Source of the DNA: Robiginitomaculum sp.
GTDB lineage: Bacteria > Pseudomonadota > Alphaproteobacteria > Caulobacterales > Maricaulaceae
DNA: 64,000 nt
Reading direction: 5' to 3'
Assembly (NCBI GenBank): GCA_021776565.1
Contig: JAJFFQ010000034.1
Span: 142,332 to 206,331 of the forward strand
Shown here: piece by piece, positions 13,137 to 13,808 of the stretch
Position numbering within the stretch: position 1 is the stretch's first letter
Layout: each line of letters starts with the position of its first letter
Program-made: the position numbers and the translations under genes
The notes under the pieces: generated by a model
Told to the model about the DNA's origin: nothing
What the model saw: only the letters and a program-made list of their open reading frames with translations
Databases searched by the model: none

Positions 13137-13808
13137 TTATCTGCCTGGTCTTGGGCGTACCAATGGGTTTTTCTTGGGTTTAAACAAGAACGGTTTTCTG
13201 GTTTGTGCATTAACATCAATTCCGCGTGCAAGACGAACCGCTGTGTCAAAGACCTCTTTTAACCCATCCTGGGTCAAGGCAGAACATTCACGATAAACCA
13301 GCCCTAAAGATCGAGCGAGCGCGTGGCCATCTGCGGTGCTCTTGACTGCGCCCGGCCAGCTATCATTATTGCGCAGATCGGTTTTTAAGCCTACCAGCAG
13401 CACAGGGGTGTGCGGAGCATGACGCCTGATCTCTGGCAACCATTTGTTGGATACGTTTGCAAAACTGGAAGGGGAAATGACCGAATACACCAGGATGAAT
13501 ACATCTGTTTGTGGATAACTCAAGGGTCGCAAACGATCATAATCCGCGGTTCCCGCCGTATCCCACAAACTCATATGCACCGCTCGGCCATCGACCATGA
13601 CATTGGCAAAATAATTGTCAAACACCGTGGGAATATACTCACCCGGAAATGCGTTTGTCGTATAGGAGATCAGTAGCGAGGTTTTACCAACGGCATTGTC
13701 TCCCACAACAACAATCTTGAAATTGTCTGTTTCAGCCAGTGCCGCTGTCGAAGCCGCACCGCAAACCGTGAAAGCACCGGCTCCTTTGAGAAGATCACGC
13801 CGTTTCAT
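13137..13808 (-). CDS. Eukaryote-like Rac/Rho-family small GTPase with a twin-arginine signal peptide
   Basis: A 223-residue Ras-superfamily GTPase of the Rho/Rac branch, which is a eukaryotic family. Residues 1-26 (MKRRDLLKGAG ... ALAE) form a Tat-type signal with the RRDLLK motif. The G domain follows at a constant offset of 26 from Rac1 as I recall it: P-loop GDNAVGKTS at 36-44, switch I with YIPTVFDNY at 58-66, DTAG at 83-86 then DYDRLRPLSYPQTDVF, G4 LKTD at 141-144, and G5 ECSAL at 174-178. Switch I and the preceding helix are identical to Rac1 over 22 residues. Rac1 Gly12 is Asn38 here, Gln61 is Thr87, the Rho insert helix is about 7 residues shorter, and there is no C-terminal CAAX box but a Lys/Arg/Pro-rich tail. 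It lies 74 bp downstream of the M16 peptidase on the same strand. Family call is firm; export and role are inference. Confidence 0.9.
   Translation of the reverse strand: MKRRDLLKGAGAFTVCGAASTAALAETDNFKIVVVGDNAVGKTSLLISYTTNAFPGEYIPTVFDNYFANVMVDGRAVHMSLWDTAGTADYDRLRPLSYPQTDVFILVYSVISPSSFANVSNKWLPEIRRHAPHTPVLLVGLKTDLRNNDSWPGAVKSTADGHALARSLGLVYRECSALTQDGLKEVFDTAVRLARGIDVNAQTRKPFLFKPKKNPLVRPRPGR

What the first reader, a model, noticed from the sequence alone, without database searches (positions are those of the whole stretch)
13137..13808. A Rac/Rho-family small GTPase with a Tat signal peptide in a bacterial genome
Seen: all five G motifs plus the Rho-specific DTAG...DYDRLRPLSYPQTDVF segment, and a 22-residue stretch around switch I identical to human Rac1 as I recall it. 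The N-terminus is a twin-arginine signal (RRDLLKGAG). Known: Rho/Rac proteins are eukaryotic and cytosolic; bacterial small GTPases such as MglA are far more distant. Inference: the gene came from a eukaryote, and the Tat signal, which exports folded, cofactor-loaded proteins, was added so that a nucleotide-bound GTPase leaves the cytoplasm. An exported Rac mimic would be a new kind of effector or surface protein.
Basis: partly seen in the sequence, partly recalled or inferred. Interest (0 to 1): 0.95.

Follow-up and report, generated by a model that had tools for sequence, protein, structure and literature searches.

The report
Rac switches with bacterial export signals
Bacteria of the Maricaulis/Robiginitomaculum group carry a family of genes for Rac-type switch proteins, a kind otherwise typical of eukaryotic cells, each behind a signal predicted to send the folded protein out of the cytoplasm, where it would likely act as a stuck-on Rac look-alike rather than as an ordinary switch.

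Summary
Window 13137-13808(-) encodes a 223-aa Rac-type G domain behind a twin-arginine signal; its nearest solved relatives are Rac3/Rac1. It is not a one-off. I collected 38 distinct family members, this one included; all 38 have RR near the start and none ends in CaaX. In trees of the G domain alone they form one clade (100/100) among eukaryotic Rac rows, apart from RhoA, Cdc42 and Asgard rows. The flank is bacterial and conserved in part of the genus, so contamination is very unlikely. This predicts a GTP-locked Rac, loaded in the cytoplasm and exported folded. No conserved neighbour was found, and no RhoGAP, RhoGEF or Roadblock match in 19 genomes (the first two searches had no ringing control). 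My best reading is an exported 'always-on' Rac decoy aimed at Rac partners of eukaryotic grazers or hosts. Export, GTP locking and target are untested; a role in the bacterium's own envelope is a close rival.

The parts
13137..13808 (-). Tat-signal Rac gene (223 aa)
   Evidence: ORF; Pfam Ras 163 bits; PDB Rac3/Rac1; 100/100 clade with 37 relatives
13734..13808 (-). twin-arginine signal region, residues 1-25 (MKRRDLLKGAGAFTVCGAASTAALA), possible signal-peptidase site ALA|ET after residue 25
   Evidence: TIGR01409 17.0 bits, cut-off 16.7; residues 1-22 pLDDT under 50; [AV]xA scan. Cleavage is predicted only
13773..13808 (-). n-region with the RR pair and start of the h-region (residues 1-12)
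   Evidence: RR in 38 of 38 family members
13221..13724 (-). Rac-type G domain, residues 29-196
   Evidence: AlphaFold model and Foldseek match to Rac1 3th5_A, TM 0.90 by target, 1.6 A, 61% identity
13814..13819 (-). ribosome-binding site AGGAGG, 5 nt upstream of the ATG
   Evidence: AGGAGG also before the start in L015, L016, L017 and L027
13140..13217 (-). C-terminal tail, residues 198-223, basic and proline-rich, no CaaX box
   Evidence: 8 K/R, 5 P and 1 D/E in 26; CaaX in 0 of 38

Best explanation
The gene encodes a Rac-type G domain, very likely of eukaryotic descent, behind a twin-arginine signal, and the protein is likely exported folded with its nucleotide bound, where it would act as a GTP-locked Rac decoy that binds Rac-partner proteins of eukaryotic cells such as grazing protists. 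Shown by calls or sequence: the fold family, the place of the family among eukaryotic Rac rows in the best trees, the signal motif and its presence in 38 of 38, the changed G12 and Q61 positions, the kept nucleotide-binding residues, the absence of a CaaX end. Inferred: the protein folds and picks up GTP in the cytoplasm; the Tat system moves it out; without the catalytic glutamine and without a GAP the GTP stays; no exchange takes place outside, so the protein is a one-shot, 'on'-state binding surface rather than a switch. Most speculative: how it would leave the periplasm (a type II secretin gene is present) and enter or touch a eukaryotic cell, and that it sequesters Rac effectors there, for example to disturb phagocytosis. 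Lacking a lipid anchor, it would more likely titrate partners than signal at a membrane.
For: Family: 38 distinct members; RR in 38 of 38; K16, T17, D57, K116, D118, S158, A159 each in 38 of 38; CaaX in 0 of 38. Tat signal: TIGR01409 over its cut-off in 3 of 8 N-termini tested, this one among them; Pfam TAT_signal matches 7 of 8 at E up to 10, 1 over cut-off; TatC in the genome. Descent: 100/100 clade among eukaryotic Rac rows; holding all 36 eukaryotic Rho rows together against Tat-Rac plus Asgard is rejected, AU p 0.021. Locking: Q61 kept in 12 of 38 against 36 of 36 eukaryotic rows; G12V and Q61L are GTPase-deficient (PMC6678527, passages read). Partner surface: positions 62-75 keep the eukaryotic Rac letter in a mean 0.93 of 32 rows; R68 and Y72 38 of 38, L67, P69 and L70 37 of 38 each, W56 35 of 38. 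Selection: dN/dS of the G domain 0.09-0.26 in 6 pairs, two of them with dS above 2. No RhoGAP, RhoGEF or Roadblock match in 19 genomes, 13 carriers and 6 non-carriers. gspD matches in 19 of 19 of those genomes, over the cut-off in 17.
Against: No export, nucleotide or binding data. 12 of 38 keep Q61, so locking is not a rule of the family. Effector-loop residues are lost in some: F37 changed in 8 of 38, Y40 in 7 of 38, which speaks against Rac-effector binding there. Switch-II conservation is partly an artefact of how relatives were found: shared exact words and the pattern YDRLRPLSY. The less conserved regions are also less conserved among the eukaryotic rows. A place just outside Rac but inside Rho was not rejected (AU p 0.112 and 0.147). 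The gene is patchy (11 of 137 genomes of the family, one of them with an in-frame stop). RhoGAP and RhoGEF searches had no ringing control. The best gspE match is under its cut-off, and gspD matches also occur in all 6 non-carriers. I did not search for injection systems, and no route into a eukaryotic cell is known. Tat-model scores are weak: 4 of 8 N-termini gave no TIGR01409 match at all.
Confidence: 0.42

Rival explanations
1. Exported, but repurposed: the Rac domain would be a nucleotide-stabilised binding module of the bacterium's own periplasm or surface (scaffold, envelope or attachment protein) with a bacterial partner, and eukaryotic cells play no part.
For: Signal kept even where the effector loop has decayed: L101, P0175, P0176, P0177 and P0178 have lost Rac F37 and D38 yet keep RR signals. 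Among the neighbours scanned there is no eukaryote-directed injection gene. Tails are net basic in the 32 rows listed, in several only by one or two charges, and could bind an anionic surface.
Against: Rac letters in switch II and W56 (35 of 38) are kept although no Rac partner was found in the genomes (with silent controls); no conserved neighbour was found that could be the partner.
Confidence: 0.36
2. Not exported: the N-terminus is a membrane anchor or a decayed signal and the protein works as a small GTPase on the cytoplasmic side.
For: Export is only predicted; guanine nucleotides and their exchange are cytoplasmic (general knowledge); 12 of 38 members keep Q61; 5 of 8 N-termini do not pass TIGR01409.
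Against: RR in 38 of 38 with a variable remainder; at least one [AV]xA site in 25 of 25 rows scanned, though such sites are common in Ala-rich stretches; dN/dS of the signal 0.05-0.13 in three close pairs of 25 codons, but 0.27, 0.44 and saturated in the other three; no Roadblock-type GAP; L013 and P0188 carry about 30 extra residues between signal and G domain, as expected of a cleaved signal rather than a fitted anchor.
Confidence: 0.14
3. Contamination or an assembly chimera with eukaryotic DNA.
For: The domain is very close to eukaryotic Rac. One hit of my scans, L026 in a 'Deltaproteobacteria' MAG, does look like this.
Against: Contig of at least 206 kb, assembly rated 0% contaminated; bacterial ribosome site and signal; the adjoining M16 peptidase has 75-86% identical relatives in 7 of the 17 other genomes of the genus; relatives in genomes of 4 genera and in several separate MAG records.
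Confidence: 0.01

Closest known systems
Eukaryotic Rac (Rac1/Rac3, Rho family)
   Same: About 60% identical G domain, switch I and II letters, W56, same predicted fold
   Different: Tat signal at the N-terminus; no CaaX; 7 residues missing in the insert region; catalytic glutamine lost in 26 of 38; found in bacteria
Rab-like proteins encoded by some Legionella species (PMC7542358, passages read)
   Same: Bacterial genes for a eukaryotic small-GTPase domain, proposed to act on eukaryotic cells; function there also unproven by that review
   Different: Rab not Rac; Legionella effectors are injected, here a Tat signal; no known host here
LegA15, an effector GTPase of Legionella (PMC9757750, abstract read)
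   Same: A bacterial protein with GTPase activity acting in a eukaryotic cell
   Different: Catalytic mechanism unlike eukaryotic small GTPases by its abstract; ankyrin-repeat effector, not a Rac
MglA and Rup, the bacterial Ras-superfamily families (PMC4316618, passages read)
   Same: Small GTPases in bacteria
   Different: MglA works with a Roadblock GAP, MglB (abstracts), of which none was found in 19 genomes here. No MglA or Rup row was in my trees
GTPase-deficient Rho proteins Rnd, RhoH, RhoBTB (PMC6678527, passages read)
   Same: Rho-type domains that hardly hydrolyse GTP and stay 'on'
   Different: Eukaryotic; here hydrolysis loss is only predicted

Membership tests
Rac subfamily of Rho GTPases | Five G motifs of a small GTPase | tested here: met
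   K16, T17, D57, K116, D118, S158 in 38 of 38
Rac subfamily of Rho GTPases | Lies inside the eukaryotic Rho family in a tree | tested here: met
   standing outside all 36 eukaryotic Rho rows rejected, AU p 0.021
Rac subfamily of Rho GTPases | Lies inside Rac rather than beside it | tested here: inconclusive
   Inside in the best trees, but holding the 33 Rac rows, or the 35 rows without RhoA, as one clade was not rejected (p 0.147, 0.112)
Rac subfamily of Rho GTPases | Rho insert helix | tested here: not met
   7 residues missing against Rac3; no helix there in the model
Rac subfamily of Rho GTPases | C-terminal CaaX box for prenylation | tested here: not met
   0 of 38
Rac subfamily of Rho GTPases | Catalytic glutamine Q61 and glycine G12 | tested here: not met
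   N12 and T61 in this copy; Q61 in 12 of 38, G12 in 31 of 38
Rac subfamily of Rho GTPases | GEF and GAP in the same cell | tested here: inconclusive
   RhoGAP and RhoGEF 0 of 19 genomes, but no control genome rang
Tat substrates | RR motif followed by a short, weakly hydrophobic stretch and an AxA-type site | tested here: met
   RR 38 of 38; h-region and [AV]xA scan, 25 of 25 rows; TIGR01409 17.0 against cut-off 16.7 for this protein, 3 of 8 pass
Tat substrates | Tat translocase in the genome | tested here: met
   TatC 227 bits; TatA and TatB not searched
Tat substrates | Export is lost in a tat mutant | not testable with these tools
   Needs an experiment
MglA/Rup bacterial GTPases | Groups with MglA or Rup in a tree | not tested
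   No such rows in my trees
MglA/Rup bacterial GTPases | MglB/Roadblock partner in the genome | tested here: not met
   0 of 19 genomes; control rang in 3 of 14
Translocated effectors that mimic eukaryotic proteins | Shown to enter a eukaryotic cell | not testable with these tools
   Needs an experiment

The most novel reading that the evidence does not exclude
A bacterial lineage captured a protist Rac once, fused it to a Tat signal so that it is loaded with GTP inside and sent out folded, and has been turning it into a GTP-locked, unlipidated Rac decoy that disarms the phagocytic machinery of its grazers: an exported small GTPase used as a one-shot weapon or shield, a class of effector that my paper searches did not turn up.
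Probability: 0.25. Interest if true: 0.95.

Novelty: new variant of a known kind. Interest (0 to 1): 0.83.

Why it matters
Rho and Rac proteins are usually taken as eukaryotic and cytosolic. A bacterial family with one origin that keeps a Rac domain behind an export signal, lacks the lipid anchor and has lost the catalytic glutamine in many members would show that a molecular switch can be made into an exported binding module. It would give a simple test case for how a nucleotide-bound protein behaves in a compartment without GTP, and possibly a new way for bacteria to resist protist grazing.

Tried and rejected
Contamination: rejected. Plasmid carriage: no match among 72,556 plasmid records. 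Conserved operon partner: 14 loci were entered, but the window itself came out empty through a slip in my script, so 13 were compared. Shared neighbours were found only between L016, L017 and L027, between L020 and L025, and one gene family some kb away in L015 and L023. Pfam names were sought for 18 neighbours in 9 loci and for the window's own neighbour; they are ordinary, and 2 of the 18 had none (one search also scanned L026's own GTPase). The window's neighbour was then traced in the genus: its close relative in G127 lies on contig C6 while the Rac gene of G127 lies on C3, and the 6 other genomes with a close relative have no Rac match, so the site is not shared. RhoGAP, RhoGEF and Roadblock partners: none in 19 genomes, with silent controls for the first two. 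Donor: Paulinella Rac was sister in one tree (96/91; 85/90) but not in the larger one, so I name no donor; grouping with 4 animal rows was rejected (p 0.012). A shared origin with the 2 Zetaproteobacteria copies was neither shown nor rejected (p 0.276); 'eukaryotes on one side' without an outgroup was not rejected either (p 0.362). The first tree probably still held signal columns and was replaced. Class-wide search: the only other hit, 22.5 bits over 65 positions, was taken as noise. Papers: nine searches (listings only, capped, for example 20 of 37 papers) showed no title or abstract start on a bacterial Rac or a Tat-exported small GTPase; most subscription journals are not covered.

Rows dropped before counts: L012, L023 and L100 (a copy with an in-frame stop); L026 (looks eukaryotic); P0174 (98% the same as L101); L011, which my script's pattern did not pick up; and loci that repeat a protein already counted. 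P0005 has 44 residues more in its record and was read from its inner MKRR start. For trees, euk_P0039, euk_P0024 and euk_P0006, 3 of the 6 Asgard rows (all 6) and, L101 were left out as long branches; the 2 Zetaproteobacteria and 2 tandem rows were left out. The 36 eukaryotic rows of those trees are 33 rows picked from the list plus three human ones.

Full report
What is there. The ORF at 13137-13808 on the minus strand is complete and has AGGAGG 5 nt before the ATG that starts the RR signal. It encodes a 25-residue twin-arginine signal region, a Rac-type G domain (residues 29-196) and a basic, proline-rich tail. Pfam Ras gives 163 bits and the nearest solved structures are Rac3 and Rac1. An AlphaFold model built on 22 sequences has mean pLDDT 78 and its best Foldseek match is human Rac1 (TM 0.90 by target length, 1.6 A, 61% identity). 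Residues 1-22 have pLDDT under 50.

It is a family. A protein search listed 120 of 7983 matches; besides the query, 21 of these are relatives with an RR start, aligned over 78-100% of the query (P0005 read from an inner start). A profile search, a search with a divergent member and whole-genome searches brought the count to 38 distinct proteins, this one included. Named records are Robiginitomaculum, Maricaulis, Marinicaulis and Hyphomonadaceae. The window's genus holds genomes whose copies are the same as those in Robiginitomaculum records, for example L005 and L015. A class-wide sample of 385 gave only the window's genome and one weak 22.5-bit match. In the window's own genus 6 of 18 genomes have it (rows). 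It is therefore an accessory gene. That these bacteria are mostly marine is recalled, not taken from a call.

Not contamination. The contig is at least 206 kb long and the assembly is rated 96.4% complete and 0% contaminated. The gene's 2-kb bin has 49% G+C, within the window's 45-55%. The upstream neighbour, an M16 peptidase, has 75-86% identical relatives in 7 of the 17 other genomes of the genus (in G126 with a further 67% piece); the other 10 show only more distant matches. In G127 that relative lies on another contig than its Rac gene, and the other 6 have no Rac match, so the Rac gene does not share this site with them. Among 13 other loci, neighbours are shared only among close relatives, apart from one gene family in L015 and L023, and the 18 scanned are ordinary, 2 without a Pfam name.

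Origin. In a careful tree of G domains without signal columns (64 rows) the 24 Tat rows form a 100/100 clade among the eukaryotic rows. With three Asgard rows as outgroup and no other bacterial rows, the clade again lies among Rac rows; a tree that keeps all 36 eukaryotic rows together is rejected (AU p 0.021), but trees that place the clade outside the 33 Rac rows, or outside 35 rows without RhoA, are not (p 0.147, 0.112). With 38 Tat rows the clade is still 100/100. The closest eukaryotic row changes between trees (Paulinella; rows P0043, P0048, P0053, P0080). I conclude one transfer from a eukaryotic Rho-family protein, most likely a Rac, donor unknown. The eukaryotic rows come from one search's best hits plus three human ones, so sampling is limited.

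The signal. RR is present in 38 of 38. The N-terminus of this protein passes the NCBI model for Tat signals by a small margin (17.0 against 16.7); 3 of 8 tested pass, 4 of 8 give no match. Pfam's Tat model hits 7 of 8 at E up to 10, with 1 over its cut-off. At least one [AV]xA site follows in 25 of 25 rows scanned, a weak test in Ala-rich stretches. dN/dS of the signal is 0.05-0.13 in the three closest pairs and 0.27, 0.44 and saturated in three others, on 25 codons each. L013 and P0188 carry about 30 extra residues between signal and G domain. TatC is in the genome. I take export as likely, not shown.

Switch chemistry. All 38 keep K16, T17, D57, K116, D118, S158 and A159. Q61 is kept in 12 of 38 (A 16, D 6, E 2, T 1, G 1) against 36 of 36 eukaryotic rows, with at least 3 changes on that tree (4 on the smaller one). 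G12 is kept in 31 of 38. This copy has N12 and T61. G12V and Q61L block hydrolysis in Rac1 and Cdc42 (PMC6678527, passages); N12 and T61 do not appear in the passages I read, so locking is a prediction. CaaX is missing in 38 of 38. The same passages say that CaaX mutants of active Cdc42 no longer cause the cell-shape changes, which is why I favour titration of partners over signalling.

Partner surface. Over 32 rows the mean share with the eukaryotic Rac letter is 0.93 at 62-75, 0.92 at nucleotide-binding positions, 0.79 at 36-45, 0.67 at 46-56, 0.60 at 76-115, 0.52 at 161-177 and 0.25 at 123-157; the eukaryotic rows themselves give 1.00, 0.97, 0.99, 0.90, 0.79, 0.86 and 0.51. The switch-II value is partly a product of how the rows were found (shared words; the pattern YDRLRPLSY). 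L101 and the six rows added from its search all keep R68 and Y72, but five of these seven (L101, P0175, P0176, P0177, P0178) have lost F37 and D38. Across the family F37 is kept in 30 of 38 and Y40 in 31 of 38. So Rac-effector binding is plausible for most members, including this one, and doubtful for some.

Mechanism. I commit to this order of events: folding and GTP loading in the cytoplasm; Tat export of the folded protein; signal removal; a stable GTP-bound form outside. The target is the weak point. Retained Rac letters without Rac partners found in the genomes point to eukaryotic Rac-binding proteins. Members with a decayed effector loop but an intact signal point to an envelope role. 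A secretin of type II secretion is encoded in this very window (53346-55517), and gspD matches occur in 19 of 19 genomes tested, 13 carriers and 6 non-carriers, 17 over the cut-off, so a way across the outer membrane is possible but not specific; the best gspE match is under its cut-off.

Known or new. Single members carry automatic names such as 'Rho family protein' or 'small GTP-binding protein'. Nine paper searches showed no title or abstract start on a bacterial Rac or a Tat-exported small GTPase; I saw capped listings, and the library covers open-licence papers only. Rab-like proteins of Legionella are the nearest precedent I found (PMC7542358, passages). I call it a new variant of a known kind: a Rac-derived domain in a form marked for export.

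Noticed in passing
L021:1010-1624, L022:9923-10534: Two Zetaproteobacteria MAGs carry Rac-like genes (60-61% identical over the G domain) with about 30 extra N-terminal residues but no RR signal like that of the family and no CaaX; Q61 is kept.
   Followed up: partly
P0008, P0009: 363-aa proteins with two Rac-like domains in tandem, the second degenerate and without CaaX; one lies on a 57-kb contig of unknown organism.
   Followed up: partly
L012, L023 and L100 (Maricaulis sp.): A copy of the Tat-Rac gene with an in-frame stop, while near relatives (P0129, P0148) are intact.
   Followed up: partly
L026:1-801: A Rac with a CaaX-like end in a MAG labelled Deltaproteobacteria; looks like eukaryotic contamination of that MAG.
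   Followed up: partly
window 13826-13844: Inverted repeat TATCAGG-ATAAC-CCTGATA between the M16 peptidase gene and the Rac gene, next to repeated GATAA words (by eye); could be regulatory.
   Followed up: no
window 46057-47421 and 52567-55517: Type II secretion-like genes in the same window: gspE-like under its cut-off, prepilin-peptidase-like by eye, gspD over its cut-off.
   Followed up: partly
L013, P0188: Members with about 30 extra residues between the Tat signal and the G domain.
   Followed up: no
C-terminal tails of the family: Tails hold more Arg/Lys than Asp/Glu in 32 of 32 rows, often narrowly, are rich in Pro, and many end in RPGG, RPGN or RPRGGGG-like motifs, kept even in the divergent L101; meaning unknown.
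   Followed up: partly
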